Assembly (NCBI GenBank): GCA_948567375.1
Contig: OX419759.1
Coordinates: 41,134,593-41,198,592, forward strand
Direction: 5' to 3'
DNA: 64,000 nucleotides
Source of the DNA: Lunularia cruciata
Taxonomy: Eukaryota; Streptophyta; Marchantiopsida; Lunulariales; Lunulariaceae
Shown here: piece after piece, positions 1-38,850 of the stretch
How positions within the stretch are numbered: position 1 is the first letter of the stretch
Layout: every line of letters starts with the position of its first letter
The notes under the pieces: generated by a model
Databases searched by the model: none
The model's input: the letters and a program-made list of their open reading frames with translations, nothing else
Told to the model about the DNA's origin: nothing
Position numbers and translations under genes: made by a program

Positions 1-59
1 GTCACACTAGTGACCGGTGTTTTGACCTACACCCGGAGTTACGGAGTGGTAGGGCTGCT

Positions 60-875
60 ATGGCAAGTAGTAGAGGAGCTCCAGTTCATGGAGGACGAGG
101 TGGTAGAGGTGGTGGTAGAGGATCTACACCTAGTAGGGGTGCAATACCTGCCCTTACTTCTGACACAACTATGGCTACTCGGATTGAGCAGTTGGAGCAG
201 AGATTGGCTAGTATGGCTATTGCTCAGAGGAGATCAGATTTGGGTGCTGAGGCTTCCACCTCATATGCTGGTGATAGAGATGCTTTAGACTTCATGTGCG
301 GAGTAGCACAAGTGGATGCATCTGCAACAGTGACTAGGAGTGCAGTACGTGCTCCAGAGCCTAGAGGAGCATCAGTGGAATTGGACCCACAAAGAGGAGA
401 GGTTGGGAGACAGGTCAGACTTCCTCAGTCTTTCACGCTATCTGAGGCATTGTAGACGACATCCATGGTTCCTAGACGTCCCAGTGCAGGTGTGGTAGGT
501 GGTGATGGAGTACCTGCTAGTCAGTCACCTACTACTACACAGACGGAGTCTAGCATGATGTTGGGGGCGGCTCAACTGATTATGCGGCATCCTTTATTTT
601 CAGCCAGTGACATGTTTTCATTGGGAGTTGACCCAGCCCCAGTATTCTGGTTGGCTGCCACGTTGTGTGAGAGTAGGGATGGTGCAGTTCCTACTACTAG
701 AGCAAAGGTGGTTGGTAGTGGAGCTGACTTGGTTGAGGAGCATGGGATCCGTTCAGCAATCAGTGGTTTATGGTAGGTAGTAGCGGCTAGACTGGAGGAG
801 TTGCCAGCTAGACCGGCCTTTGAGAGAGTGCGGTTTACACCTGGTGTTGTCCTATTGGATAACCAGAGGGGGATT
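60..875 (+). pseudogene. N-terminal region of the methyltransferase-bearing gypsy polyprotein (gag-like or linker, unrecognised)
   Basis: Starts at ATG 60, the first Met in the frame shared by all downstream domains. Residues 5-25 are an RGG-type Gly/Arg-rich stretch, followed by a short helix-prone segment (IEQLEQRLASM) and Ser/Thr/Pro-rich linkers. In-frame stops lie at 453 (TAG) and 774 (TAG). I see no CCHC zinc knuckle and no clear capsid signature, so gag may lie upstream of the window or be this unrecognised region. RGG boxes commonly bind RNA, which would suit a nucleocapsid-like role, but that is inference. The true start could be further upstream. Confidence 0.5.
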
Positions 876-1655
876 TTTCATTTGGTGGGACCTTCAGGGA
901 AGGTCTATACACCACAGAGAGTCTTGTTAAACTTTGGTGCGTAGCCCCTTATGTTGGGGAAGGCTGCAATTGTCAGTCTAGAGTTACGGAAGACTAATGT
1001 GGAGAGGTGTCCATTTCAGATCCAAACATCTCTAGGTGGTGGTTCAACATAGTACATCGTTGGTGGTGGTTTGACACAGTACATCACACGTGGAGAGCTC
1101 GTTGTCCAGGTTCAGCCTGGTCATCCGACTGATAGCTCGGTGGTGAGAGCTCAGGCTATTGCAACGATAGCTGAGTCATATGATGTGCTAGTTGGGAGAG
1201 CAGTGTTATACCCTATGGGTTTCAGCATTGGCTATTGGGAGGAGACAGCCTCTTATAGACCTGGTTGGCAGTCTGGTGAGGGACGGGTATGTCGCCTACC
1301 AGTACGCTTTAGTAGTGGCAGTCTTGGCTCACTACAGTCCGGGACCATGGCAGCATCAGTTTTGGCTTTCAGCGGTGCAGTCACTTGGCCTGGTGACCTG
1401 TTGGAGGGGAACGCCCATGCAGAGGATACTCCAGTACCAAAGGAGATCACTTGGCTATGGAGTACGAGTGGGATTGTTCCATCCACCTTGGATGTTCCAT
1501 TGTGGAGTTCAGAGGAGGCATTGCAGCAGCATGCAGATTAGTTGGTGCAGCAGGTTTGGAGTGGAGCCTTCATACCATCAGGGGATGAGTGTGAGGATGA
1601 GCCTCCAAAGGCGATTGCTTTGACACCTCTGGAAACCACACTCATTGCTTGGCAG
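876..1655 (+). pseudogene. Retropepsin-like aspartic protease domain (inactivated)
   Basis: The frame reads RVLLNFGA at 918-941, which aligns with the LLDSGA active site of retroviral-type aspartic proteases. The catalytic Asp codon is AAC (930-932) and the next Ser is TTT, so both are lost by single transitions. A TAG follows at 942. Further on, ESYDVLVGRAVLYPMG (about 1170-1220) fits the second conserved protease segment (YDVLLG-type) and leads into an aromatic stretch, YWEETASYRPGW. More stops lie at 1050 and 1539 (both TAG). The domain sits where protease is expected, before the polymerase, although here a methyltransferase intervenes. It would have cut the polyprotein. Assignment rests on these two motifs. 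Confidence 0.65.
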
Positions 1656-2640
1656 TATCCAGTAGAGGGGATATGCCTATTGGAGTTGTTTGGTGGGATC
1701 AGCACCAGACTAGCTATGGTGTTACAGGCGGGTATACGAGTACAGAGGTACTTGTATGTAGAGAGAGATGAGACTGCTAGGCGAGTCTCTCTACATCATG
1801 TGGCACACTTGGCCTATCAGTATTCGGAGTTATTATCAATGTCAGCAGCCAGAGGTTACCAGAAGGCCTTACCAAGAGACATTTCCTTACTGGGGGTGCA
1901 TGACCTAGAGAGACATGGGCCTATTCACTTGGTGATTTCTGGATGGCCATGTCAGGGACATACACGTGCGGGCCACGGTTTGGGTCTTCAGGATCCTCGT
2001 TCTGGTGTGTTTTGGGAGATGTTACGGATACTACGACATCTCTAGGTTCATCAGTCTGTTTCTCCAGCTTACCTTTTGGAGAACGTTCCTTTGATGGGGG
2101 ATTCTCGCACTAGAGTGGTGGCAAGTACACATCAGGTCCATTCTTGGATGGGACCTGCTGTATTGTTAGATGCAGCCAGAGTGGGATCACGGGCTCATCG
2201 TCTTCGTCTTTGGTGGACGAACCTCTTACCCAGAGAGGTTCTACAACGGGCTTATGATGGGATTCAGCGACTGGACCACATTCTTGTTGATGATATCTTG
2301 GATGTTGGGTGTCAGTCTCAAACAGTGGTAGTGGCTGATAGGTCACCTATGGCAGTGGTGAATCTAGTTGGACAGCCTAGAGCTGCATTTCCCACACTCA
2401 TGAGTTTCCCAGGCTCTCATGCTTTTCGAGAGGGAGGACCTGGACTTGTTTGGGACTCACAGTTACAGTAATTGGTGGAGCCCAATGCTGATGAGAGAGA
2501 GCGGGCGATGGGTTTCTTCACCGGTATTACTGCTGTTCCAGCAGTGTCAGAGGCATCCAGGCGTTAGGTGTTAGGTCAGGCTATGGACCTGAACTGTTTG
2601 ACCTGGATTGTGAGCCTTGGCTTGGCAGAGTAGCATAGGA
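1656..2640 (+). pseudogene. DNMT3/DRM-like C5-cytosine DNA methyltransferase domain embedded in the gypsy polyprotein
   Basis: Motifs of C5-cytosine methyltransferases appear in order: motif I LLELFGGIS (about 1680-1706, AdoMet binding), a following hydrophobic-acidic step (YLYVERDE), motif IV ISGWPCQGH with the catalytic Cys codon at 1950-1952, motif VI ENVP (2079-2090), motif VIII SRAHRLRLWWTNL (about 2187-2226), a target-recognition-like region with FPTLMSFPGSHAF, RERAMGF (about 2490-2515) and motif X LGQAMDL (about 2571-2590). The motif I-IV spacing, the RAHRxRxWW form of motif VIII and the short recognition region look more like DNMT3/DRM than DNMT1/CMT. The catalytic residues are present; the domain is broken only by stops at 2043 (TAG), 2469 (TAA), 2565 (TAG) and 2631 (TAG). 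Its ancestor would have transferred methyl groups to cytosine-5 in DNA. Frame continuity with RT shows it belongs to the element and is not a host gene it landed in. Confidence 0.85.
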
Positions 2641-2954
2641 TGCGCTTGATAGGCATCACCACTCGGACAATTGTGAGCCCTGTGCCTATCGAGACGATTC
2701 AGGCACATGCTGGGGGCGATGGACCGAGTGGACATGGTATTCTTGGGACACATCCAATAGCTACTAGGGAGAGTGGTCTACTTGGAGTCCATCTAGGTGA
2801 GCGTGGGCTACTTGGATTACACCTTTGGTCCACATGGGATGCAGCCAGAGGACGTGTGGAGCTTGCAGCCAGAGTGGAGGGAGTTTTTCACACAGAGGTT
2901 GGGACCTCTAGTGGTCGGGAGCATGACACTATTGCTCCCAAGGGCCCAGTGTAG

Positions 2955-3995
2955 CAGCCAGTCAGTACGTCTTCCACTCCTACTACAGTTACAGAGGATA
3001 CTTGGGAGCCAGATCTTGGACCCAAGCTTACTAGAGAGGAAAGACGGAGGGCTTGGAGGTTCTTGAGGAGTCACACGAGTTGTTTTGCCTTCAGTATGAA
3101 GGATTTGGGTGCTCTGAAGGGACCTGGTATACGGATTGAGCTGACTAGCAACACACTTGTTTTCCGACGTCCTTATCGATATAGTGATATGGAGAGGACA
3201 TTGATTCAGAGCCGGAGTAGTGACCTTTTTGAGGCTGGTTTGGTGGAGATTTCACATGGAGAGTATGCATCAGCAACAATGATGCCAGCCAAGAAGGATA
3301 TGCATGGCAACTATACAGATAGGCGGATGTGTGGAGATTACCGTCCTATCAACCGACAGACCAGGGCTGATCGGTATGCCATGCCTACACCGGAGGAGAT
3401 TTTTGATGCAAGTGGGCATGCAAAGGTCTTCAATACTTTGGATCTTCGAGCGGGATATCATCAGTTGCCGATCAGGGAGGAGGATAAGTCCAAGACAACA
3501 TTTTGGGCTATTGATCCTCACAGCAAGGATGTGTTATATTAGTGGAGGTTCTTACCATTTGGGTTGAAGAATGCTCCCGCTGAGTTCCAGAGGGTCATGG
3601 ATAGGATCCTAGCTGGATTGGATTTTGCTTGGTGCTATATTGATGACATTTTGGTTTTTAGCACTACTGTGGAGGAGCATGAGAGATAGTTGTTGGAGGT
3701 GTTTGAGAGGTTGAGATCTCATGGACTCAAATTACATCCTAGGAAGTGAAGGTTCTTCCATGAGCATGTTGAGTATTTGGGTCACACTATCTACCCGAGA
3801 GGACTTGGTGTTGAACAGACCAAGGTGGAGGCTATTGCACGTATTCCTTGGCCTACGGATGTGAGTAGAGTGCGAGCATTCCTTGGGTTGGCGAACTTCT
3901 ATCGCCGCTATGTTAGAGGATTTAGTGCCATTGCCAAGGCCTTGACGAAGTGGCCCAAGCTTACACAGGAGTGGTGTTGAGGAGATGAGCAGGAG
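2955..3995 (+). pseudogene. Reverse transcriptase domain, methyltransferase-bearing gypsy copy 1
   Basis: After a TAG at 2952 the frame is open to 3539 and reads the palm-finger core of a gypsy reverse transcriptase: CGDYRPINRQT, NTLDLRAGYHQLPI, then past a TAG at 3540 [16 protein letters not shown] and the catalytic YIDD box (3636-3647). Thumb and connection motifs follow: HVEYLGHTI, and VRAFLGLANFYRRYVRGF near 3870-3925. Stops lie at 3540 (TAG), 3687 (TAG), 3747 (TGA) and 3978 (TGA). At 3978 the older copy has TGG, so this stop is a G-to-A change. The enzyme would copy the element RNA into DNA in the particle. Both catalytic Asp residues are kept. Confidence 0.92.
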
Positions 3996-4480
3996 AGAGC
4001 TTTTGTAGAGCTCAAGGAGAGGTTGACATCTGCTCCTATTTTGAGGAGACCAATCAGGGGACGACCATTTCAGGTTCACACTAATTGGAGTATGTTGGGG
4101 CTTGGAGCGGTGCTCACCCAGCATGATGATGAGGAGAAGGAGTTTGTGGTGGCCTATGCTAGTCGCTCCAACAATTCAGCGGAGGCAAAGTATAGTTCAT
4201 ATGAGGGAGAGCGCTTGGTAGCAGTTTGGGCAGTAGCACATTTCCGATGTTACCTATTTGGTAACCCCTTCACTCTCATCACTGATCACCAGCCGTTGAA
4301 GTGGTTGATGGAGTCCGACAAGCTTTCAAGGAAGCTTGCACGATGGGCTCTGATTTTACAGGAGTATGATTTCATGGTTGTTCACAGACCTAGAGTGGTG
4401 AACTGTGATGCAGATGGGTTGAGTAGAAACCCATGTCCCAGCCAGCAGGATCAGACCGGAGCATGTTGGCATGGTGAGAC
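3996..4480 (+). pseudogene. RNase H domain, methyltransferase-bearing gypsy copy 1
   Basis: Typical gypsy RNase H: FQVHTNWSMLGLGAVLTQ, FVVAYASRSNNSAEAKYSSYEGERLVAVWAV, TDHQPLKWL (about 4278-4304) and a C-terminal VHRPRVVNCDADGLSR. The first catalytic Asp is replaced by Asn (AAT at 4083-4085); the older copy keeps GAT at the matching site, so the loss is a G-to-A transition specific to this copy. The Glu and second Asp are present. No stop falls inside the domain. It would degrade the RNA strand during reverse transcription. Confidence 0.88.
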
Positions 4481-5700
4481 AGATGAGGAGATGGTGCCAA
4501 GTTGGCATGCATCGGCCTTTCTATGTATATTGGTAGAGGCATTGGTGGTATCTCTCTCAGCGCATACAAGAGGAGTTATTGAGGTCACAGATCCAGAGAG
4601 TGAAGATATTTGTACAGTTCAGCAAGACATTCATGATGATGTCTTAGTGATGGACTATCTTCGCACTGGTGTTGTGGGTGGCACAATTGGGGCCAAGGAG
4701 AGAGACCGTGTTCTTCAGTGAGCCAAATGGTTCAGATTGGAGGGTAGAGTGCGAGTAGTACCACTTCCATCACAGAGACCACAGTTGGTCCGTCATGCTC
4801 ATGAGGAGCTAGGACATTTTGGAGTAAAGCATACGTATAGCTTACTCCAGAGTCATTATTGGTGGCGCGGTATGCAGACCGAGGTACAGCAGTTTGTTGC
4901 CGGATGTATGGTTTGTGACCGAGTTAGATCATCATTCAATGCTCCTACGCCACAGTTATACCCATTACCTATCATGGGATTGGGTTACCGTTGGAGTTTG
5001 GACTTTGCCGGACCTTTACCGCTGACTGTGAGACATCATCGGTATGTTTTGGTGATGGTGGAGCACTTCTCCAAGTGGATTGAGTTGGTGGCACTTCTTG
5101 ACAAGTCTAGTGAAGGGACAGCTTACTCATTCCTGGATCAAGTTCTTAGTCATTTTGGTGCACCAGCTGAGGTTTTGACTGATCAGGGTACAGAGTTCTT
5201 GGGAGAGTTTCAGGTCTTGTGTGACAAGGCTTTGATTGATCATCGTACTACATCCCGAGATCACCCTGAGGTAGATGGCTTAGCAGAGAGAGTGGTTCAG
5301 ACGGTGAAGAGAGGATTGCAAAAGTATGGTTTGCAGAGAGGCCACTTGGGAGATTGGGATCTCCAGTTACCTTGGTTGGCCATGGGCTATTGGTTCAGCC
5401 GGCAAGCCTCCTTAGCATCCTTCTCTCCATACTTTCTACTCTATGGACAAGATCTAGATTTACCTGCAGCCATTCGTCAAGATGCTACTGTAGTTTTGGA
5501 CTTGGATGACCCCGATGTATGGATGAGCGCATGTTCTCAGTGGGCAGAGATCTTTCGGAGAGTGATGCCGATGGCCTTTGAGAACTTGGCGATTGCTCAG
5601 CATAGAGATACTTTACGCTATGCTACCATTTGAGGAGGAGGTTATAGACCCTCGATCCGTCGATTTCATCCAGGCGACTATGTATATCTATAGCAGATAG
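4481..5700 (+). pseudogene. Integrase (HHCC zinc-binding and DDE core, GPY/F-like end), methyltransferase-bearing gypsy copy 1
   Basis: After a linker and a TGA at 4719, the zinc-binding HHCC module is intact (HAHEELGHFGVKHTYSL, then CMVCDR, about 4793-4925). The catalytic core shows the first Asp in SLDFAGPLP (codon 5001), the second in LTDQGTEFLG (5181) and the Glu in GLAERVVQT (5286), about 35 codons after the second Asp, as in the family. After a TGA at 5631 the frame continues RPSIRRFHPGDYVY, a GPY/F-like segment, with a TAG at 5691. The TGA at 5631 is also present at the matching site (16797) in the older copy. The protein would insert the cDNA into host chromatin. All catalytic residues are kept, so loss is by stops only. 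Confidence 0.9.
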
Positions 5701-6190: not shown

Positions 6191-6207
6191 CCAGCTAGGG
6201 GGGCGAT
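6191..6207 (+). promoter_or_regulatory. Polypurine tract, plus-strand primer site (copy 1)
   Basis: A G-rich run (agctaggggggcga) directly precedes TGTGGCAC, the LTR start. The same arrangement, tagggggcaa then TGTGG, is found in the older copy at 17371-17381. A polypurine tract next to the 3' LTR primes plus-strand DNA synthesis in LTR retrotransposons. Confidence 0.75.
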
Positions 6208-6312
6208 TGTGGCACTTTAGAGTCTATGTATGACTTATGTGTGAGTTGTGTTTCTATAGTGTATGATGTTGACAGTGATGTATGTTGTGTAGCGATGTAT
6301 ATACGCCCGACA
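6208..6312 (+). repeat. 105-bp terminal direct repeat, left unit (copy 1)
   Basis: Starts TGTGGCACTTTAGAG and ends CGCCCGACA. It differs from the right unit (6765-6869) at about two positions. It is also found twice in the older copy, at 17382-17486 and 17947-18051. Confidence 0.85.
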
Positions 6313-6764
6313 GCTGTCACGCCATTTGTAGTTCCGCGTCTAGATGCTCGGATACTTGAGTTCCAGTGATAGTAGTTAGAGTTATTTCAGTAGTATCTCA
6401 GAGACTACTTTTCGACGGTCAGATTTGGTGTTTGGGGTACTGACTTCACGGTGGGGCCCACCATCACTTTGCACCGTTTGCACCATCGAATGTGCCGTCA
6501 GTGAGACCGTTAGGGTTTCAGGGCTAGCTCGAGTCCAGGGGTATAGTTTTGAAGGTGAGCTCCAGAGAGCTCACTTCTCTGATGTTGAGCCTTCGAGTTC
6601 TTGGCTATGGTGGACAGAGGCTGGCGAGCGTCACCTGGATTCTCTATGCTTGAGTGGGTGTGGCTTGACTGTAATCAATGCCCAGTTGTTGGCAGTTTAT
6701 AGAGTGACAGATCAAGTACTGATATGAGTTGAGTTGAGTTGAAAGTGTTAAGCAATCTGATTAT
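6313..6764 (+). other. Interior of the terminal module (452 bp, non-coding)
   Basis: Shared with the older copy (about 17487-17946), including a short CACCATTTGCACCAT-type repeat near 6470-6486. A 100-codon open frame at 6425-6727 is broken in the older copy, so I do not regard it as a gene. No TATA box or primer site is convincing here. Confidence 0.6.
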
Positions 6765-6869
6765 TGTGGCACTTTAGAGTCTATGTATGACTTATGTGTG
6801 AGTTGTGTTTCTATAGTGTATGATGTTGACAGCGATGTATGTTGTGTAGCGATGTATATACGCACGACA
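6765..6869 (+). repeat. 105-bp terminal direct repeat, right unit (copy 1)
   Basis: Near-identical to 6208-6312. It ends GCACGACA, where similarity with the older copy also ends, so this is the outer edge of the element. The flank from 6870 is unrelated to the flank of the older copy. Confidence 0.85.
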
Positions 6870-7254
6870 AAGGACTTGGATATAGATGCACTTGTGAAAA
6901 GAATTCAGTGGGAACTTTTGGTAACTTTGATTTGCATGAAGTTGGCTAGGTGAGGTCTGATTTTGATCAGACTAGTAGGAGATAATCAAGAGAAGGGCAG
7001 ATCAAGATAAACAAAAGAACAGATTGGATAAGAAAAGAGTTAGTCTAGACAGGGCTTCCCAATGATATTTATAACCTGTATTGAGAGGGAGTAAAAATCC
7101 TAGATCTGTGTTGCCATGGATGTAGGAGCAAGTGACTTTGAACCATGTTAATTCTTGTGCACCTATTGATGTGTGTGAGTACATTTTTCCACCTTTCTCT
7201 TTTCTCTCCCGATATGTTTTTCCTTCTTGTGCAAGGTTGATCTCAATAGTTGAA
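6870..7254. other. Flank between the two gypsy copies, no gene seen
   Basis: AT-rich sequence without coding signature or recognisable repeat. The older gypsy copy becomes alignable somewhere around 7245-7296. Confidence 0.5.
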
Positions 7255-8479
7255 GATTGTCATAAGAACAATAGAAAAATCAGTAAAGATCCCCAACAAA
7301 GGATATATTATATCAATGTAAGTTCTTACTATTTGGGTTAAAGAATGCTCTTGCCAAGTTCTAGATGTTCATGGACAAGACCCTACTAGGATAGGATTTT
7401 GTTCTATGTTATATGGATGATATTTTGGTCTATATCACTATTATGAAGGAGCATGAGAGACATTTATTGGAACTATTTGAGAGATTAAGATCTTATGGAC
7501 TAAAATTACATCTTGGGAAGTGCAAGTACCCTGGTGAACTTGGTATTCAAAAAACCAAGGTAGAGGCTATTTCATGTCATCTTTGGCCTACAAATATGAG
7601 CAAAGTGTGAGCATTCCTTGAATTGGTGATCTTTTATTGCCAATATGTTAAAAGATTTAGTTTCATTGCCCAAGGCCTTTACAAAGCTGACCAAGCTTAC
7701 ATAGGAGTGGTGTTGGAGAGATGAGTAGGAGAGAGCTTTTATAGAGCTCAAGGAGATGTTGAAATCTACCCCTATTCTTAAGAGACCAATCAAATGACCA
7801 CCACCCCAAGTTTATATTGATTGGAGTATGTTGGGGCTTGGAGCAATGCTCACCAAGTAGGATGATAAAGGGAGGAGTTTGAGGTGGCCTATACTAGTCA
7901 CTTGAACCATTTAGTACAAGCAAAGTATAGTTCATATAAAAAAGAGTGATCGGCAAGAATGTGAGTAGTAGCATATTTTTGATGTTACCTATTTTGTAAC
8001 CCTTTCACTCTCATTATTGACCATCAACCACTAAAGTAGTTGATGGAGTCCGGCAAGCTTTCAAGGAAGCTTGCACAATGGACTATAATTTTCTAAGAGT
8101 ATGATTTTGTGGTTATTGATAGACTTGGAGTGGTGAACCATGATAAAAATGCATTGAGTAGAAATCCATGCCTTTGCCATCATATCAGACCAGAGCATGT
8201 TGGCATGGTGAGATAGATGAGGAGATGGTGTTAGGTTGAGATGCATCTACCTTTCTATGTATATTTTTTGAGGCTTTGATGGTATCTCTCTTAGCACATA
8301 CATGAGTTGTTGAGGTCATAGATCCAAAGTGTGGAGATATAGGTACAAGTCAACAAGACATTCATGATGATGTCTTAGTGATGGACTATCTTTGCATTGT
8401 TGTTGTGGGTGGCACAGTTGGTGCCAAGGAGAGAGACCATTTCCTTCAACAAGCCAAGCAATTTAGATTGGAGGGTAGA
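7255..8479 (+). pseudogene. Older copy 2 of the gypsy element, left part (truncated RT and RNase H)
   Basis: Aligns with 3490-4745 of copy 1. Visible pieces are the RT palm with YMDDILVY near 7405-7430, a degraded thumb region (FERLRSYGLKLHLGKCKYP), the connection region, RNase H (YIDWSMLGLGAML near 7813, keeping the catalytic Asp lost in copy 1) and the linker up to RLEGR (8460-8479). It has many stops and frameshifts, unlike copy 1, so it is older. It begins inside RT: protease and methyltransferase are absent. It is cut at 8479 by an insertion and resumes at 15936. Confidence 0.88.
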
Positions 8480-9640
8480 CACCTTCTTTATGTATGGTGT
8501 GACATCCCAATGTCAATGTATTTGCAGTATAATTGATAAGAATAGGTCATTCCTATGAGGATATAGTTCAGAGTTGGCTAGGAGTGAAGGGAAAGTGTCA
8601 CTTCGTCACAAGTCAACTGTTGTTATATATTTAACTTCTTGGGTAGGACAATCCCCAGAAGCAAGTAGAGTACTCTTTGTGGCATACTACAACAAAATAA
8701 AAACCACTAAATCACATTCAAAAATAATATCTCACTACATGAGCTCATGAAGGTGATGATTCCATCTATCATGTTGGTCATTGGCCCTAAAGGTCTTACA
8801 CTTGATATTATATAATAGTACCTATACAATGCATACCATAGCACCAATGAGAGCATTCTACTCTTCCCAAAAGGCACTCCTCATTATTATACTACAAGTT
8901 CATAATATCTTGTGCTTTTTATTTTGTGTTATACTTTACAACACTCATAGCCGTCATGGCTCTCAATGTGTCACCCTGACTCTTTAGAACTCCCAAGCTT
9001 GATTGCCCTCTTGCACCTCACCACTTGCATTACTATTTCAAGTTTATCACCATTACTAGACTCAAGGATCATGAAACATACACCATATTGACATTGATAC
9101 AATTAAGAGCTAAGAGGTCCTTAGGCATAATCCCCACAACATAGTCAACTTTGCAAACATACAAGCAAAGTGATTGCACATTCACAAGTTTGAACAGATA
9201 GGTATGAGATGGAACTCCTATCTATGCTGACTAAACTTGTATGAAGTCTAGGTAACTCTCCTCGTACTCTCTATTACAACAAGATGGGGTACATCCATGG
9301 TTGCGTGATGCCATGACCCCAAAACTATGAATTAAGACAAACCCTATTCTCCCTAATTGGTTGTTATAGATTCAATGCTATGGCAATGCCACCTGCAAAA
9401 GAGGCACTTACTAAAAGATCTACCAATACTATGACTCTAGCTACACATTAATGGTCCCATCAATCAGATATTTACAAAAGAATCAATTTAATGTATAGAG
9501 ACTTAATTGCTCAAAGAATTCCTATACATATCATCATGCAAAGACATCCCATCACAATAAAGTCCATAACCCAATGGTCATGTCATGACAACCACAAATT
9601 GATGGTCCAAAGCTACAATTATACAAATATTGTAGACCAC
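8480..9640. other. Insert, left end: no gene seen
   Basis: AT-rich, many short stops in all frames. The longest open stretch (about 8781-8987 on plus) has no recognisable motif. No repeat structure noticed. Confidence 0.4.
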
Positions 9641-22402: not shown

Positions 22403-22547
22403 TGTAACAATATGGAGTTTAGCGACGAAGTCAGTCAGGCTCACAAAGTAGCACATAAGACAAATTAGCCTAGAATATTCCGGAAGTATCTAAGAACCTT
22501 CTTGGGAAGCTTCCCGGTTAGCTTAGTTTGCACCTTAAGTAAGTAGC

Positions 22548-22574
22548 TTCTAGAAGGAAGCTTCTAGAAGCTTC
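22548..22574 (+). promoter_or_regulatory. Heat-shock-element array in the chromovirus LTR
   Basis: GAA (22557), TTC (22562), GAA (22567) and TTC (22572) alternate at exact 5-bp steps, which is a perfect four-unit heat-shock-factor site; a further TTC-nn-GAA lies just upstream (22548-22555). More GAA/TTC pairs follow at about 22608-22636 and 22675-22695. It lies about 145 bp upstream of the TATA box, inside U3. The same four-unit site is in the 3' LTR at 27793-27810. Heat-factor binding is inferred from sequence only. Confidence 0.65.
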
Positions 22575-22716
22575 CAACTAGCTTAGCTTGCACGCCAAGT
22601 AGGCGGCTTCTAGAAGGAAGCTTCTTGAGAAGCTTCCTAGTTAACTTGGCTTGCACTCTAAGAAAGTGGCTTGAGGAAGCTTCTTGAGAAGCTTCTCAAG
22701 GGCCTTGTATGCTACC

Positions 22717-22724
22717 TATAAATA
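22717..22724 (+). promoter_or_regulatory. TATA box of the chromovirus LTR
   Basis: TATAAATA in the context ctacctataaataccaaagcc, about 110 bp before the LTR end. Matching TATAAATA in the 3' LTR at 27953-27960. Confidence 0.8.
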
Positions 22725-22829
22725 CCAAAGCCAAAGCTCATGCTAGGCATTCAGAGTTTTCTCTCATTCAAGTGTCCCAATGTGAGTTTCCGTTCTCATA
22801 TTTCTCTCCTTGGTTTTGGTCTTTTACAT

Positions 22830-22841
22830 TGGTATCAGAGC
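22830..22841 (+). promoter_or_regulatory. Primer binding site, initiator-Met tRNA type
   Basis: TGGTATCAGAGC one base after the 5' LTR. This is the usual plant LTR-retrotransposon primer site, complementary to the 3' end of initiator Met tRNA. Confidence 0.92.
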
Positions 22842-23099
22842 AAGAATAGGATGGATGGAATTTATGGACCACCAAATCCACTTCCGCCAAACCATTGAGA
22901 CTTTCATGTCCAGATATTACCAAAGCATCGTTTCACATAATTCATCACCTCACGCTTTGGGCAGGATTTTCTACATATGATCACCGAGTCAGAGGAACCC
23001 TTGATACTTCCAGTTGTAACTTATGGAGAATGGTGGACGTGTTGTATCTATGGGTTAATCAACTAGATAAATTGAGCGTAGTGGAATAGAGTAGTAGCG

Positions 23100-23990
23100 A
23101 TGGCGGCAATACCGGATGTTATCCTTGCAATGCAACAACAAATTGAGCATCTTACTCGATTGTTGGATGAACGAGACCAGCAACGATGAGAATAGATAGA
23201 CAGAGCGCCAGTTTGAGATGGAGAAGATTGCATTCGATTTCTGAAACCCAAGGTGTTTGAAGGCAAGAATCTTCCAGGCACAGTGGAGAATTTTGTGTTT
23301 GACTGTGAATGTTACTTTGAAGCCACCAATCTTCAAGACAAGCGGAAACAAATTCTCTTGGCTTCTAGCCAGTTGGATGGCGTGGCAAAACTTTGGTGGC
23401 GATTCCGAGTAGAAAGAGCTGAACGACAAATTGTTACACCAAATTTGACATGGGCAGAATTCAAGGATGCAATACTTGGTTGATTTCATACTATAAATGC
23501 CACCCAAGCTGCACGATATAAATTGGTGGAGTTGAGGCAGATTGGCTCAGTGAGAAGCTACATCACACAATTTCAGAATATCATCATGCAAATTCCATAT
23601 ATCCAAGAAGGTGAAGTTCTGGATCGATTTGTGTGAGGATTGAAGTCACAAACCAAATTGGAGGTGACCATGCGAGAGCCATAGAACGTAGAAGAAGCCA
23701 TGCAATTGGCTGAGCATTTTGATTCCTTAGTTGCAACAACTTGGTCTTGACCTCGACTTACACAAAACCTACCAGTACCATGAGTGGAAGAACCGGTACC
23801 AATGGAGATTGATGCTATCCAACAAAGACCACTTTGCACAGTAGATAGAGAAAGATTATGACAAAATGGAGGTTGCTTTTATTGTTGCCAAGTTGGACAT
23901 CGCATTGCTGAATGTTCACTTAAGAATGGGCAACCTCAACAAGTTGCCCAGATGGAGTTTGTGGAATAGAATGATCAGGGAAACAAAGAA
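23100..23990 (+). pseudogene. gag of the chromovirus (capsid and zinc knuckle)
   Basis: ATG 23100 starts a frame reading a capsid-type gag: KPKVFEGKNLPGTVENFVFDCECYFEA, LLASSQLDGVAKLWWRF, YITQFQNIIMQIP, and a CCHC zinc knuckle CFYCCQVGHRIAEC with ligands between 23874 and 23915. Stops occur near 23187, 23193, 23481, 23634, 23682 and later; several, such as TGA 23481, fit CGA to TGA changes. It would form the particle shell and bind the RNA. The downstream pol is in another frame, so an indel lies near 23960-23990. Confidence 0.88.
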
Positions 23991-23998
23991 TCCCAGTA

Positions 23999-24420
23999 GG
24001 AGATTTTGAGCCGCCTATTGGGAGCTTGATTAGTTCCAATGGGATTGAAGGCTCAACCTATGCAAGTTTGCTTCACTTGCAAGGTATGATATCTAATCGG
24101 GGTTGTAGGATTTTGGTTGATTCTAGAAGTTTAAAGAATTGCATATCTATGCAAGTAGCAAAGGAATTGGGTATTCCTATCAAGCCAGTGATTGGAAGTT
24201 GTTTGATGATGGCGGATGGTAGAAAAGGTTCTGCATTCCGCACCTTGCATCCTGTTACCTTCAAGATTGGGAAGGAGTATTTGGAGTGTATGAGGTTTGT
24301 AGTGGCACCTCTACATTATGATATCATTCTGCATCTACCTTGGCTTGAACATCATAAGGTTCAATTTGATTAGACCTGACGTCAAATTCAAGTACAACAC
24401 CAAGGTAGGAATTTCTGATT
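23999..24420 (+). pseudogene. Aspartic protease of the chromovirus
   Basis: Reads SSNGIEGSTYASLLHLQG, then ILVDSRSLKNCISMQVAKELGI and YDIILHLPWLEHH. The active-site triad expected as D-S/T-G is DSR (Gly to Arg), which should inactivate it. A TAG after VQFD (24371-24373) breaks the frame before the RT. The related copy at 52312-52746 has the same layout. Confidence 0.82.
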
Positions 24421-24700
24421 AGGTTGTCTGGCACCTCTAAGTAAGACATCTAAAAATAGTCAGTCCCAAGATGGGAAGTTTGTTGAGAAGGTAGCCATAG
24501 AGCAAATCTGGAAGTGAGATGAGTCCCAAGATGGGAAGTTTGCCAAGAAGGCAACCATGGAGCAAGCTTGGAAGAGAGATGAGTCCCTAGAAGAGAAGTT
24601 TGTTAATGAAGCAGCCATAGAGCAAGCTTTGGAGGAAGATAAGTTTGTATTTGCAATGTGGATCAAGCCGATTGCACAAGAACAATCTAAGGAGGGCTAG

Positions 24701-25440
24701 GTGCCGCATCAAGCAATGGTTGATCGGATAGTTCAGGAGTTTGCAGATGTGTTTCCGGATGATCTGCCAAAGGGATTACCCTCTGATCAAGGTATGCCCT
24801 TCAAGATTGAGTTATTGCCAAGGAGTACTCCAGTGAGTAGACCAATCTATCGGCTCTCACCAAAGGAGTTGGAGGAGTTGCAAACAACACTTACAGAGTT
24901 GTTGGAGAAGGATTTCATACGACATAGTACCTCTCCGTGGGGAGCACCGGTACTATTTGTTCCAAAGAAGGATGAAGGACTTCGTTTCTATATTGATTAC
25001 CGTGGGCTCAATAAGCAAACCGTGAAGAATGCATATCCCTTGCCTTGGATCGATGACCTGCTTGATCAATTAAGTGGAGCACGCCACTTTTCCAAGCTAG
25101 ATCTTTGTAGTGATTATTGGCAAATTCCTATTGAAGGAGAGGACATGCAAAAGACTGCCTTTCGCACAAGGTATGGACATTTTGAGTGGAGAGTTCTACC
25201 TTTCGGACTCACTAATGCTCCAGCAGTCTTCATGGATCAAATGCATCGGGTGTTGGAGAGACTATTGGATCAGTCCGTGGTAGTGTTCTTAGATGATATC
25301 TTAATCTATAGTAGGACAGAGGCAGAACACAAGAATCATGTGCAAGAAGTCCTAAGATGACTACGACAGTGGAAATTTTACTGCAAGAAGTCAAAGTGTG
25401 CTTTTTGGCAGGAAGAGGTTACCTTCTTGGGTCATAAGAT
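24701..25440 (+). pseudogene. Reverse transcriptase of the chromovirus
   Basis: Open from 24701 to 25360 and clearly gypsy: [76 protein letters not shown] and catalytic FLDDILIYS near 25290-25315. A TGA at 25358 (likely from CGA) breaks the frame, which then continues without shift through KCAFWQEEVTFLGH. The catalytic Asp pair is intact. Confidence 0.93.
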
Positions 25441-26075
25441 CTCATCAGAGGATATCAAGATGGAAGAAGAGAAGATCAAGGCCATTACTGATTGGCCTAT
25501 CCCAAAGGATGCTACCAAAATACAAGCATTCAATGGATTGGCCAGTTTTTACCGACCGTTCATCCACTATTATGCTCACGTAGCTGCACCATTGACTGAC
25601 CTCTTGGGAAAGAACTCGAGCTTCCAATGGACCACCAAGCATGAAGAAGCATTCCAGAAGTTAAAGCATATGGTGTCTTCAAGACCCATTCTTCAACCAT
25701 ATGATCCTCAACTACCTTGTGTGGTTGATTTTGATGCTTCCAACTTTGCAATTGGAGCTGTGTTGCAACAAGAATTTCCAGATGGACTACATCCTATTGC
25801 CTTTGTGTCTCGCCGACTAAATACAACTGAAAGAAATTACTCTGCTCAAGATCAGGAACAACTTGCAATGGTATATGCCACCAAGGTATGGAGGCATTAT
25901 CTCTTGGGGAAACAAGTGATCATGCGAACTGATCACAAGCCATTGTTGCAGACCTTACACCTAGAGCACATGAAGAGTCAACATCATCGATGGAAAGAGC
26001 AACTCCAATTGTTTGACATCAAACTTGAGTACAAACCAGGTCGGTTCCATGTCATCCTTGATGCTCTTTCATAAC
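25441..26075 (+). pseudogene. RT connection and RNase H of the chromovirus
   Basis: Open from 25427. FNGLASFYRPFI is the thumb-connection motif; RNase H reads VVDFDASNFAIGAVLQQ, FVSRRLNTTERNYSAQDQEQLAMVYA and MRTDHKPLLQTL, with all acidic catalytic residues kept, and ends at a TAA (26072) after LDALS. It removes the RNA strand during cDNA synthesis. Confidence 0.93.
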
Positions 26076-27180
26076 AACCTGATTTGAAGTCTCTTCCTCT
26101 CATCGCGGCAGCAATTACGACGGTGTCAATTGATCCCAAGATTCATAACGAGTTTCGGTTAGCTCTACAGCAAGATCCCTTCTTCCAAATGGTACATGGT
26201 CGGCTAACAATAGGTGACAAGGAGTACAACACCTTCTCCTTCAAGGAAGGCCTTCTATTCCATGCGGACCGGATCTATGTTCCAACCAAAGGTGATCTTT
26301 GACTTGTGCGCCTTCAAGAAGCCCATGATTTACCCATTGCTGGTCACATGGGTGTGGACAAGACCTTGGGTACCCTCCAACGTCAATGGTGGTGGCCCAA
26401 CATGACACAGGATGTTTGAGAATTTGTCCGATCGTGTGAGAGCTGCCAACATAACAAGGCCAGCAACCAAAAGCTGGGTGGACTCCTTCAACCGCTTGCC
26501 ATTCCATCAACTCGTTGGGAGCATGTGAGCTTTTATCTCATCACATCCTTGCCAAAGACAAAACAAGGACACACCGCCATCGTGGTGTTTGTGGATAAGC
26601 TTAGTAAGCAAATCCACTTTGCACCAACTTGTGATACCGTGGATGCTCCAACCTTAGCGCAAATCTACTTCGACAATGTCTTCAAGCATCATGGAATGCC
26701 ACACGTTCTCATCTCCGACCGTGATCCTCACTTTACCAAGAAGTTTTGGCAAGCACTCTTTCAGATACTCGGCACCAAGCTTGCTTTGTCCACGGCCTAT
26801 CATCCTCAAACTGATGGACAAACCGAACGTGAAAATCGTACATTGGAGGATATGTTGTGTGCCTTTGTCAATGTCCACCATACCAATTGGGATGAATGTC
26901 TTGCCATTGCTGAATTTGCCTACAACAATTCCAAACAGGCAAGCATTGGATTCTCTCCTTTCTTTCTCAATTTTGGCCAAGATCCGCTTGTTCCAGATTC
27001 TCTTCTTGCTCTCCCTCCATCTCAAGTTCCTCATACTTCTGCATTCTTGACCATTATATCCCAATCTCTCCAACAAGCCAAGTCTCACCTCCTTGTTGCT
27101 CAGAATCACCAAAAACAATATGCGGACCACCATCGTCAAGATCTCATTGTCGAGATCTCACTTTTGAAGTCGGTGATAAA
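26076..27180 (+). pseudogene. Integrase of the chromovirus
   Basis: Zinc-binding region HDLPIAGHMGVDKTLGTLQ...CESCQHN (26320-26460) has both His and both Cys. In the core the first catalytic Asp seems lost: the segment reads WEHVSFYLITSLP where D is expected in place of Y (26532-26534). The second Asp (ISDRDPHFTKKFW) and the Glu (ENRTLEDML) are present. TGA stops at 26300 and 26418 fit CGA changes. A small tandem duplication of agatctcac near 27138-27163 shifts the frame before the GPY/F region. Confidence 0.9.
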
Positions 27181-27183
27181 GTC

Positions 27184-27622
27184 ATGCTATCCTCTAGTAA
27201 CCTCCCTCTCCCACTTGATACCCAAGTTCGTAAACTTGCCCTTAATTGGATAGGACCCTTTGATATCACCCAAATTGTCTCTCTTGTTGCTTATTGTCTT
27301 GCCTTGCCTTGTCACATGCGTATCCATCCTATCTTTCATGTTTCCAAGTTGAAACCCTTTGTTCCTAACCTCTCTTCCTTTTCTTCTTGAGTCCAACCTC
27401 CCCCTCTTCCTATCCCTATCAATGATCATGAGGAGTACAAAGTTGATTGTATCCTTGCGCGTTGCCACATTCAACGAAGCCGTCGCCAACATACGGAGTA
27501 CAAGGTCCTTTGGAAAGGGTATCCCCTTCATGATGCCACTTGGGAACCTCTTTCTCACCTTTACAATGCACAGACGGCCATCCAGGAATTCGAAGCTTCA
27601 CTGGCAACGAGGACGTCACTAA
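27184..27622 (+). pseudogene. Integrase C-terminus with chromodomain
   Basis: After the frameshift the frame reads KLALNWIGPFDITQIV (GPY/F motif), MRIHPIFHVSKLKPF, then past a TGA at 27388 a chromodomain at about 27430-27600: EYKVDCILARCH, TEYKVLWKGYPLHDATWEPL, AQTAIQEFE. The aromatic and WKGYP/TWEP signatures are typical. In chromoviruses this module directs integration to chromatin with H3K9 methylation. The frame reaches the end of the internal region just before the polypurine tract. Confidence 0.92.
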
Positions 27623-27623
27623 C

Positions 27624-27638
27624 TAGCGGCGGGGAATA
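27624..27638 (+). promoter_or_regulatory. Polypurine tract of the chromovirus
   Basis: agcggcggggaata directly before the 3' LTR. Moderately degraded purine run at the correct place. Confidence 0.7.
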
Positions 27639-28064
27639 TGTAACAATATGGAGTTTAGCAATGAAGTCAGTCAGGCTCACAAAGTAGCACATAAGACAAA
27701 TTAGCCTAGAATATTCTGGAAGTATCTAGGAAGCTTCTTGGGAAGCTTCCCGGTTAGCTTAGCTTGCACCTTAAGTAAGTAGCTTCTAGAAGGAAGCTTC
27801 TAGAAGCTTCCAACTAGCTTAGCTTGCACGCCAAGTAGGCGGCTTCTAGAAGGAAGCTTCTTGAGAAGCTTCCTAGTTAACTTGGCTTGCACTCTAAGAA
27901 AGTGGCTTGAGGAAGCTTCTTGAGAAGCTTCTCAAGGGCCTTGTATGCTACCTATAAATACCAAAGCCAAAGCTCATGCTAGGCATTCGGAGTTTTCTCT
28001 CATTAAAGTGTCCCAATGTGAGTTTCCATTCTCCTATTTCTCTCCTTGGTTTTGGTCTTTTACA
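27639..28064 (+). repeat. 3' LTR of the chromovirus
   Basis: 426 bp, TG...CA, about ten differences from the 5' LTR. It retains the four-unit heat-shock-type site (27793-27810) and the TATA box (27953-27960). Confidence 0.95.
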
Positions 28065-37240: not shown

Positions 37241-38850
37241 GGGTTGGACAAGGTTGACTTTCTTGTATAGAAGAGAAACTGGGTGGCCGAGAAGCATATC
37301 AACATAATAAGGAAACATGAAACACCAAGTGGATCTTCATATGTGGCGATAGCTTGAGGTGATAGATTACGGTGCGGATGCGACAAAGGATGGAGAAAGG
37401 TCCAATAAATTGAAGTTTGAGCTTATGAGGACCAACTAACTTGAGATTGGTGGTTGACAACCAGACTTGGTCTCCAACATTGAACTCCATGTGTTGGAAA
37501 TGTGCATCTACATATTGCTTTTGCCAATTTTGAGCAATCTGCAACCTGTGCTTGGCATGCTCCACCCCTTGTTGGAATCTAGAAACAAAAGTGTTGACAA
37601 TGTCAACCTTGGTAGCCACCAGATGGAAATTTATCAAGCTTGAAGGTGTGAAAGGATGCTCTCTATACATGAGGAAGAATGGTGTGATTCGTGTGGAGGC
37701 ATTCACCAAATTGTTGTGAGCAAATTCCACCAATGGGAGTAAGGTGTCCCAACTCTCTTGCTCATCCAAAGTAAAGCCCCAAAGCATGTCCTCAATAGTG
37801 CAATTTCCCCTCTCTATTTTTCCATCAGTTTGTGTTGGTAAGCTATGGACATAGCCAATTTGGTTTTGGAGAACCCAAAGAGTGTTTTCTAAAACAAACT
37901 AGTGAATTGAGGGCATATATCTGTGATGAGCACTTGAGACAAGCCATGATGGGAAAAGACTGCATCTAAGTACAATTAAGCTAGTTAAGAGGCAGTCACA
38001 TCGTTGGTGGTAGGATGTACATAAATCATTTTGCTGAGTCGGTTGACAAAGACTATAATAGAATCAAACCCAAAGGTGGTTTTGGGCAATTCACAAACTA
38101 GATTCATGCTCACTTGTTCCCAACATTGTGTAGGAGTGAGGAGAGGTTGGAGGGTCTTGTGGGAGCTTGATTAGAAGCCTTATTTTGTTGACAAAGTAGG
38201 TAGTTCCAAACATATTCCATCATATCATTGTTCATCTTGGGCCACTAGTAATGGCGTTTGACTGCCTTCAAGGTCTTATCCATTCTAACGTGACCTACAA
38301 TTGCAAAATCATGACATTCTCCTAGGATGGTGGTTCTTAGATCCATACATGTGTGATCCATAACACACTATCACGGAAGGTGAGTCCTTGGATGTTGGTG
38401 ATGCCTTGGGATGATTGAGCACTTACAATCTATGGATAAGTTTTTGAAGCAGCAAGAATCCTAGGCCATAATTCAAGGTTCATCTTGATTTCCACCAGCA
38501 AATTGTTTGCCATTGGCATTTGGATGAACGCATCCGCAAGTTGTTTCTTGCCCTCCACATATCTGATTGTCATGTTGAATTATTGTCTCCACTCTGCACA
38601 CCAAATCTGTCAATAAGACAGATCTTTTTGTGTCTCAAGGTAGACTAGAGGTTTGTGGTATGTCTCTACCACAAATGCCTTCTCACCCATATAGTGCTTC
38701 CAATGCTTGGTGGTAAGGATGATGGCCAGCTCTTCTTATTTAGTGGTGTGATAGTTTCATTCTGTGAGTAGCAACTTATAAGAGAAATATGCAATTTGGT
38801 GCCATCTATCCTGCTATTCTTGTTGTAGCACTGCTCCTATTACTACACCT
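37241..38850 (-). pseudogene. RNase H end and integrase of the nested gypsy element
   Basis: The open minus frame 37787-37299 reads AHNNLVNASTRITPFFLMY, the H-R-L-Q-I-A-Q-N zone, FNVGDQVWLSTTNLKL, KLQFIGPFSILCRI and MKIHLVFHVSLL, which is the integrase C-terminal part with its GPY/F motif. To the right, GKIERGNCTIEDML near 37810 holds the catalytic Glu. The core and zinc region (37850-38350) is degraded. RNase H traces such as GVVIGAVLQQE and YVEGKKQLADA lie at 38540-38870. Confidence 0.82.

What the first reader, a model, noticed from the sequence alone, without database searches (positions are those of the whole stretch)
1656..2640. A DNMT3/DRM-like cytosine methyltransferase built into a Ty3/gypsy polyprotein
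Motifs I, IV (PCQ), VI (ENV), VIII (RAHR) and X of C5-cytosine methyltransferases lie in the same frame as, and between, protease and reverse transcriptase. Established knowledge: I recall published reports of cytosine methyltransferases captured by retrotransposons in dinoflagellates and charophyte algae; a land-plant gypsy element with a DNMT3-like domain plus a PHD finger is not one I know. Inference: the element could have methylated its own cDNA or target site, for silencing, protection or host tolerance.
Basis: partly seen in the sequence, partly recalled or inferred. Interest (0 to 1): 0.92.

Follow-up and report, generated by a model that had tools for sequence, protein, structure and literature searches.

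The report
Plant retrotransposon carrying a DNA methyltransferase
A large family of jumping genes in a plant, probably a liverwort, carries a DNA-methylating enzyme, a histone-reading finger beside its integrase and oddly arranged end repeats, which makes it a rare case of a genomic parasite equipped with the kind of enzyme hosts use to silence it.

Summary
Window 1650-2640 encodes a C5-cytosine methyltransferase (PF00145 over its cut-off; intact copy: best PDB match DNMT3A, E 8e-12) in frame between an aspartic-protease motif and reverse transcriptase of a Ty3/gypsy element. It is no one-off: 150 places were scored and an element-internal junction occurs 514 times. The window copy is broken. 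New anatomy: the enzyme lies in a gag-protease ORF ending at a conserved TAG CAG CCA (13 of 13 in-frame copies), a TMV-type readthrough context; pol follows and ends in a PHD finger after a DDE integrase. Repeats are DIRS-like (A-internal-B-gc-A-B), yet 4-bp target duplications flank 9 of 9 copies. Shared substitutions give modest evidence of purifying selection. Its closest sequences here are phage DNMT3-type enzymes, not host DNMT3 or DRM. A charophyte gypsy element with DNMT3 and DIRS-like repeats is published (PMC5890265), so this is a new variant of a known kind; I found no land-plant case in print (open-access library only). Host (liverwort) and function are inferred.

The parts
3..875 (+). 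3' part of gag: second CCHC zinc knuckle (cut by the window start), RGG-rich stretch and spacer
   Evidence: In-frame translation with stops shown; 3 of 3 other copies printed show CEHCHRFGHTSDRC; weak Retrotrans_gag, 14.2 bits under the 24.1 cut-off, in 1 of 3 ORF1s
880..1230 (+). aspartic protease by motif (LLDSGAQP ... YDVLVG in other copies); DSG is NFG in the window copy
   Evidence: Motif reading of 3 other copies and the window; no Pfam match
1650..2640 (+). C5-cytosine methyltransferase, DNMT3 type, motif order I-IV-VI-VIII-X; four premature in-frame stops in this copy
   Evidence: PF00145 over cut-off; DNMT3A 8.4e-12 for another copy; motif conservation in 19 copies; stops
2952..2954 (+). 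conserved TAG ending ORF1, followed by CAG CCA (fits the recalled TMV-type CAR-YYA readthrough context)
   Evidence: 13 of 13 in-frame copies; in 6 of 8 copies chosen for long frames an open frame of 250 aa or more starts directly after it in the same frame
2955..3980 (+). reverse transcriptase (YIDD)
   Evidence: PF00078 19 bits, under the cut-off, in the window piece; 110.7 bits in L014
3981..4440 (+). RNase H
   Evidence: PF17917 115.6 bits
4722..5630 (+). DDE integrase: H2C2 zinc domain and rve core
   Evidence: PF17921 64.6 and PF00665 48.1 bits
5898..6032 (+). PHD finger at the C-terminus of the pol frame; C4HC3 complete in L011, L013 and L016, one Cys to Tyr in the window copy and in L015
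   Evidence: PF00628 36.6 bits, 40.8 in L014; residues
6197..6203 (+). polypurine tract AGGGGGG just before B1
   Evidence: Sequence; the same block precedes B1 in 9 of 9 copies
6206..6312 (+). split direct repeat B1 (107 bp), followed by the dinucleotide GC at 6313-6314
6315..6763 (+). split direct repeat A2 (about 449 bp); its partner A1 lies upstream of the window (L018)
6764..6869 (+). split direct repeat B2; 3' end of the element (...CGACA)
6870..6873 (+). 4-bp target-site duplication AAGG (same 4 bp before A1 in L018)
   Evidence: read

Best explanation
SHOWN: this is one degenerate copy of a high-copy Ty3/gypsy family. Its structure is A1 - [capsid-like, zinc knuckles, protease motif, DNMT3-type methyltransferase] - TAG - [RT, RNase H, DDE integrase, PHD] - B1-gc-A2-B2, flanked by 4-bp duplications. 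INFERRED: Gag-protease-methyltransferase is the main product and a minority of ribosomes read through the TAG to make pol, so the methyltransferase enters the particle in Gag-like amounts. There it methylates newly made double-stranded cDNA, most likely at CG. The copy then integrates already marked like host heterochromatin, with the PHD finger guiding the integrase to chromatin of a given histone state. INFERRED for the repeats: reverse transcription is self-primed (the first 14 nt after A1 pair with A at about position 257) and gives an ordinary linear form whose LTR is B-gc-A; the two ends are joined (A2|B2), and the integrase opens the joined molecule at the palindrome GACA-GC-TGTC inside the LTR, losing GC, which yields the observed split repeats.
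For: Family: 150 scored places, 514 exact B1-gc-A2 junctions against 0 for the reversed pattern. Order and ORFs. Stop context 13 of 13. Repeats and duplications 9 of 9. On contig C1, 28 of 54 methyltransferase places have an exact junction within 9 kb, 27 of them downstream and 25 at 4.79-4.80 kb. Self-complement of 14 nt in 5 of 9 copies and 12 nt in a sixth, 0 of 150 shuffles as long in those six. GC (GT in one copy) between B1 and A2 and absent at the ends. A2|B2 canonical in 15 of 20 further junctions, with one +A variant, as end joining could give. Selection: in 8 copies shared changes are 3 non-synonymous to 11 synonymous, private ones 36 (3 of them stops) to 23, p 0.015; RT in the same copies 4:5 against 42 (9 stops):11, p 0.042. 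dN/dS 0.36 among copies, against 0.62 for RT and 0.26 for RNase H.
Against: No activity, expression or methylation data. The element is not more CG-depleted than its surroundings: CpG o/e 0.44-0.47 in 8 copies and 0.40 in the window copy, against 0.08-0.30 in seven flanking steps. Decay of the window copy is at CG and CHG (9 of 95 and 22 of 206 sites, CHH 5 of 829), which host MET1 and CMT would explain. A symmetric circle has two equivalent sites and should also give a mirrored form with the junction about 4.6 kb upstream; none was seen, so polarity is unexplained. A2|B2 is identical in 9 of 9, which fits templating at least as well. In 3 of 9 copies the longest self-complement is another 10-nt match. 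dN/dS of 0.33-0.36 is weaker than the <0.2 reported for K. nitens copies (PMC5890265). With 19 copies the selection test weakens (30:32 against 90:51, p 0.045). Eight of the nine full copies were picked for long frames, which biases the sample toward conserved ORF1. Among those eight, pol runs unbroken to the PHD in only one.
Confidence: 0.5

Rival explanations
1. The methyltransferase is kept for something other than cDNA methylation: it marks its own RNA, or acts as a DNA- or RNA-binding scaffold in the particle, or dampens the element to a level the host tolerates.
For: Position beside zinc knuckles in the gag ORF fits an RNA-handling role. De Mendoza et al. got no activity from the K. nitens gypsy enzyme in yeast, which they call inconclusive (PMC5890265). 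No excess CG loss in the element.
Against: The catalytic blocks around PCQ and ENV are kept (18 and 19 of 19 copies), and among solved structures the nearest family is DNMT3, a DNA enzyme.
Confidence: 0.3
2. The methyltransferase is a passenger: captured once, carried along in a recent burst, without present benefit.
For: Copies are close: window piece 89-92% identical to the other 149 scored places, i.e. the part seen is one young family; dN/dS only moderately below 1.
Against: Shared changes are enriched for synonymous ones, as in RT; motifs conserved; open frames up to 1448 aa through the domain.
Confidence: 0.15
3. The split repeats are templated from the RNA, as proposed for DIRS and Ngaro elements (recalled), rather than made by joining cDNA ends; the integrase then acts on that circle.
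For: Same A-B-A-B layout as DIRS elements and K. nitens gypsy-Dnmt3 (PMC5890265 legends); A2|B2 junction identical in 9 of 9; polarity fixed in 27 of 28.
Against: Polypurine tract just before B1 and self-primer site directly after A1 predict an ordinary LTR of B-gc-A; 3 of 20 further junctions vary, one by a single extra A, which plain mutation could also give; no tyrosine recombinase among Pfam matches of the ORFs scanned.
Confidence: 0.35

Closest known systems
KnitGypsy-Dnmt3, Klebsormidium nitens (de Mendoza et al. 2018, PMC5890265; parts 1-4 of 7 of the main section and passages read)
   Same: Ty3/gypsy domains with a DNMT3-type methyltransferase; DIRS-like repeat structure; purifying selection reported
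   Different: Described as in the Pol ORF; here it lies in a gag-protease ORF before a conserved stop. 'PHD' occurs 0 times in the main text (figures not held). Host there is a charophyte alga. Sequence kinship not tested: I had no K. nitens sequence. A 2025 paper calls the streptophyte case LTR Copia (PMC12344493, passage).
SymbioDIRS-Dnmt3, Symbiodinium (same paper)
   Same: DNMT3 domain beside RT; split direct repeats A-coding-B-A-B; catalytic activity on CG shown in yeast for that enzyme
   Different: Tyrosine recombinase instead of a DDE integrase; a DIRS and not a gypsy element
Chromoviruses (Ty3/gypsy with a chromodomain after the integrase; recalled)
   Same: Histone-reading module at the integrase end of pol
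   Different: PHD finger instead of chromodomain, plus methyltransferase; the main text of the plant LTR survey PMC6317226 has no occurrence of methyltransferase or PHD (passage search)
Tf1/sushi group (self-primed reverse transcription; recalled)
   Same: Sequence right after the 5' repeat is complementary to a stretch of that repeat that could be the RNA start
   Different: Split repeats, methyltransferase, PHD; RNA start not mapped
Phage DNMT3-type methylases, e.g. Morganella phage Henu15 Gp27
   Same: Closest sequences found: 82-89 bits, 26-31% identity
   Different: Free-standing phage genes

Membership tests
C5-cytosine methyltransferase, DNMT3 type | PF00145 profile match above the curated cut-off | tested here: met
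   24.4 bits against 22 in the window piece; 28.9-29.9 in 3 of 3 ORF1s scanned
C5-cytosine methyltransferase, DNMT3 type | Catalytic motifs in the order I-IV-VI-VIII-X (unlike rearranged DRM) | tested here: met
   the motif X match to DNMT3A is weak on its own (4.8 bits)
C5-cytosine methyltransferase, DNMT3 type | Nearest to DNMT3 among solved enzymes | tested here: met
   DNMT3A 8.4e-12, DNMT3B 1.5e-8, HaeIII 5.1e-4, DRM2 2.9e-3
C5-cytosine methyltransferase, DNMT3 type | Falls inside the eukaryotic DNMT3 clade of a tree | tested here: inconclusive
   Long branch, position open in a 32-row tree whose program warned of long branches and unusual composition; only host DNMT3 and DRM stood for eukaryotes; phage enzymes score higher than host DNMT3
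C5-cytosine methyltransferase, DNMT3 type | Methylates cytosine in DNA | not testable with these tools
   needs an assay
Ty3/gypsy LTR retrotransposon | gag-PR-RT-RNaseH-INT(rve) order | tested here: met
   (gag weak in Pfam, protease by motif only)
Ty3/gypsy LTR retrotransposon | Short (4-6 bp) target-site duplication with TG...CA ends | tested here: met
   9 of 9 copies, 4 bp
Ty3/gypsy LTR retrotransposon | Two complete identical terminal LTRs | tested here: not met
   5' end has A only, 3' end B-gc-A-B, 9 of 9
Ty3/gypsy LTR retrotransposon | tRNA primer-binding site (TGG...) after the 5' repeat | tested here: not met
   A1 is followed by CATCAGAGAAG in 6 of 9 copies and by one- to two-base variants in 3; 12-14-nt self-complement in 6 of 9; no host tRNA set was compared
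DIRS-like elements | Split direct repeats A-coding-B-A-B | tested here: met
   9 of 9
DIRS-like elements | Tyrosine recombinase and no target-site duplication | tested here: not met
   rve integrase found, no recombinase family among the Pfam matches of the ORFs and pieces scanned; duplications in 9 of 9
KnitGypsy-Dnmt3 | Sequence kinship with the K. nitens family | not tested
   I had no K. nitens sequence

The most novel reading that the evidence does not exclude
A land-plant gypsy lineage that packages a DNA methyltransferase at Gag-like levels so that every new cDNA is methylated before it integrates, with its DDE integrase acting not on the ends of linear cDNA but on a pre-joined site inside the LTR of a circular form, and with a PHD finger choosing the chromatin. 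This would join three departures from the standard LTR-element life cycle in one family.
Probability: 0.3. Interest if true: 0.88.

Novelty: new variant of a known kind. Interest (0 to 1): 0.7.

Why it matters
[quoted passage not shown] A high-copy, young, apparently constrained family in a probable liverwort gives a tractable system to ask why a parasite would methylate DNA. The split repeats combined with a DDE integrase and 4-bp duplications bear on whether retroviral-type integrases can use a joined, circular form, long treated as a dead end (recalled).

Tried and rejected
One-off insertion into a single copy: rejected. Chance match: rejected. DRM-type enzyme: rejected on motif order and score. 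Origin from the host's own DNMT3 or DRM gene: not favoured but not excluded, since the retrotransposon branch is very long and the phage rows were picked (4 of 454 phage records with a match, and 21 of 56 loci). Tyrosine-recombinase DIRS element: rejected. tRNA priming: not seen. A first dN/dS run was inflated by two frameshifted copies (L003, L005) and, after dropping frame-broken pairs, gave INT 1.13, post-INT 1.13 and PHD 0.26 among non-window copies; the rerun left out those two copies, and its gag, INT, post-INT and PHD rows kept only the window because fixed offsets fell out of register, so constraint on integrase and PHD is not shown. Close relatives of the methyltransferase in viral contigs: no pattern match; in genome contigs 26 pattern matches, none a relative. 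Structure prediction was not run, because its stated rule does not list loci of this kind. The pattern search for variants of the A2|B2 junction did not complete (first asked, last), so the sample of 20 stands in for it. The tufA test for land plant against alga was asked once and not answered.

Full report
THE OBSERVATION. In + frame 3 the window reads from the end of gag through protease motif, methyltransferase, reverse transcriptase, RNase H, integrase and a PHD finger without a frameshift, but with stops. Pfam on ten stop-to-stop pieces gives PF00145 (24.4 bits, cut-off 22), RT_RNaseH, Integrase_H2C2, rve and PHD over their cut-offs and RVT_1 under its own. In other copies PF00145 reaches 28.9-29.9 bits in 3 of 3 ORF1s scanned, and one pol ORF of 1037 aa gives RVT_1 110.7, rve 47.6 and PHD 40.8 bits. 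The 336-aa domain of one copy matches DNMT3A in the PDB at 8.4e-12; its best stretch covers motifs I to VIII, and a second stretch aligns motif X but is insignificant alone (4.8 bits); DRM2 scores 0.0029. Motif order is not rearranged.

A FAMILY, NOT AN ACCIDENT. The window lies in a 565.8-Mb genome of 74 contigs. The window's own 167-aa piece has 150 scored matches, 89-92% identical apart from itself, with open frames up to 1448 aa (10,040 first-look candidates, only 150 scored, so a lower bound biased to the best). An exact 24-base pattern across B1-gc-A2 occurs 514 times, its reversed control 0 times. The window copy is an older, broken member: four premature stops in the methyltransferase, protease motif NFG, a PHD cysteine replaced.

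ORF PLAN. Eight further copies were fetched because one search showed long frames in them. Their ORF1 is 1428-1448 aa and runs through capsid-like, zinc-knuckle, protease-motif and methyltransferase regions (3 copies printed). It ends at a TAG equal to window 2952-2954, followed by CAG CCA, in 13 of 13 copies that are in frame there (window, these eight, L002, L004, L006, L007); L003 and L005 are frameshifted and were set aside. In 6 of the 8 an open frame of at least 250 aa starts directly behind that stop in the same frame; it runs unbroken to the PHD in one. TAG-CAR-YYA is the TMV-type readthrough context (recalled). The published K. nitens element is described with the enzyme in Pol (PMC5890265). 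Here it would be made at Gag level.

REPEATS AND INTEGRATION. In 9 of 9 copies the 5' end carries repeat A (449-461 bp) and the 3' end carries B (107-111), a dinucleotide (GC in 8, GT in 1), A, then B again. Ends read TGTCAC (TGTCAT in the window copy) to CGACA and are flanked by matching 4-bp duplications in 9 of 9, read by eye (AAGG, CCTA, CACT, CCTC, CATG, AAGT, GTGC, ACAA, TAGA). A polypurine tract lies just before B1. The bases right after A1 are complementary over 14 nt to A at about position 257 (266 in one) in 5 of 9 copies and over 12 nt at the same place in a sixth; in the other three the longest match is a 10-nt one elsewhere. By sequence reading, a TATA-like TATAGTTTC lies about 28 nt upstream. 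These marks say that reverse transcription sees an ordinary LTR of B-gc-A, whereas integration uses a site inside that LTR. Joining the cDNA ends (giving A2|B2) and opening at the palindrome between B and A yields what is seen. Of 20 further C1 junctions, 15 have the canonical A2|B2, 1 has an extra A, 2 are altered and 2 are not interpretable (L124 joined to an inverted internal piece; L130 has no A2 there). On contig C1, 54 methyltransferase places (31, 23 with an approximate offset) were set against 79 junctions: 28 have an exact junction within 9 kb, 27 downstream (25 at 4.79-4.80 kb, one at 4.33, one at 5.25) and 1 upstream at 8.6 kb, probably a neighbour; 26 have none; 28 of the 79 junctions had a listed methyltransferase place nearby. 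A mirrored form (junction about 4.6 kb upstream) was not seen, so the fixed polarity is not explained by a symmetric circle.

SELECTION AND AGE. A1/A2 divergence ranges from 0.0066 to 0.058, the window copy being the oldest of nine. dN/dS in the methyltransferase is 0.356 among 12 in-frame copies and 0.327 against the window copy (13 of 15 copies kept); linker 0.420 and 0.880; RT 0.623 and 0.574, RNase H 0.262 and 0.462 (8 of 9 copies kept for each). Changes shared by two or more of 8 copies are 3 non-synonymous to 11 synonymous, private ones 36 (stops included) to 23 (p 0.015); RT 4:5 against 42:11 (p 0.042); with 19 methyltransferase copies 30:32 against 90:51 (p 0.045; the shared class includes 3 recurrent stops); codons with more than one change were set aside. 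Since copies were picked for long frames, this is modest evidence that the enzyme is maintained about as much as RT.

METHYLATION FOOTPRINT. Of 63 changes private to the window copy over 2.9 kb, 43 are C>T or G>A. Rates are 9 of 95 CG, 22 of 206 CHG and 5 of 829 CHH sites (7 more had no defined context). Over the nine A1/A2 pairs the differences are CG 29, CHG 20, CHH 11 and 17 others; a control LTR pair of another gypsy element in the window has CG 5, CHG 0, CHH 3 and 3 others. This points to maintained CG and, for this family, CHG methylation. The host has its own candidates: DNMT3-like (L036, L049), DRM-like (L037, L047), CMT-like and MET1-like exons (L048, L050), named here by reading their motifs. 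The footprint therefore does not show that the element's enzyme acts on DNA.

ORIGIN. By one scoring scheme on six sequences the domain is nearest to a phage DNMT3-type enzyme (82 bits), then a second phage enzyme (74), a DNMT3A fragment (59) and host DNMT3 (42); DRM and phage L097 gave no hit, though DRM scored 48 bits. In the 32-row tree its place is open and its branch very long. The phage rows are the best of many, so the donor is unsettled.

PHD. The C4HC3 pattern is complete in L011, L013 and L016; L009 has it with one residue missing before the last pair, and L015 has Cys to Tyr like the window copy. Best PDB matches are CHD4, KMT2D, KMT2C, PHF12, DPF3, KDM5B; ATXR5 is also listed. Which histone state it reads cannot be told.

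HOST. A 112.5-kb plastid contig shows, in the 20.5 kb read, rbcL-trnR(CCG)-accD-ycf4-cemA(430 aa)-petA and rps12-rps7-ndhB-trnL(CAA), with psbM, ycf66-like and petN reading frames, then trnC and rpoB, and also chlL and chlN frames (genes named by my reading). Eight contigs of 60-85 Mb make up about 558 of 565.8 Mb. From recalled gene orders and chromosome numbers this is a bryophyte-grade land plant, most likely a liverwort; the tufA test that would have helped separate alga from land plant did not complete.

LITERATURE. PMC5890265: parts 1-4 of 7 of the main section plus passages. PMC12344493, PMC6338049 and PMC6317226: passages only. Searches for a land-plant case or for the repeat layout: (listings); no title or abstract start shown there reports one, within an open-access library only. 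One search was a listing on stop codons in retrotransposons.

VERDICT. It is a new variant of a known kind: as far as these searches go, the first land-plant gypsy element with a DNMT3-type enzyme, with the enzyme on the Gag side of a leaky-type stop, a PHD finger after the integrase, and split repeats in an element with a DDE integrase and target duplications. Shown: anatomy, copy number, duplications, motif conservation. Inferred: readthrough, packaging, cDNA methylation, self-priming, circular route, PHD targeting, host lineage.

Noticed in passing
window 7299-8480, +: Second, older fragment of a related element (RT and RNase H side), 78-85% identical to 3525-4748, just downstream of the main copy.
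   Followed up: no
window 22403-28064, +: Another gypsy element with ordinary LTRs (97.7% alike), RT, RNase H and rve (the last under its cut-off), with a tRNA-type primer site TGGTATCAGAGC by eye.
   Followed up: partly
window 37302-37898, -: Open frame with a Tf2-1-like SH3 domain (PF24626, 59 bits): probably a remnant of a further gypsy integrase.
   Followed up: no
window 8500-64000: Strong CG depletion, CpG observed/expected 0.08-0.30 in seven 8-kb steps; no tRNA by ARAGORN and no Rfam family at gathering score in the window.
   Followed up: partly
L036, L049 (DNMT3-like), L037, L047 (DRM-like), L048 (CMT-like), L050 (MET1-like): The host genome holds DNMT3-, DRM-, CMT- and MET1-like exons (named by motif reading); flowering plants lack DNMT3 (recalled).
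   Followed up: partly
repeat A of copies C6b (L025) and C10 (L023), printed: The presumed RNA start lies in a perfect inverted repeat GAAGTGAGCTC-CAGA-GAGCTCACTTC; its role is unknown.
   Followed up: no
L124: A2 is joined to an inverted piece that resembles the sequence around the ORF1 stop, as self-integration of cDNA might give (read by eye).
   Followed up: no
G000 contigs C8, C12, C11, C10, C6 and C7: Short nuclear matches to RuBisCO large subunit, probably plastid DNA transfers.
   Followed up: no
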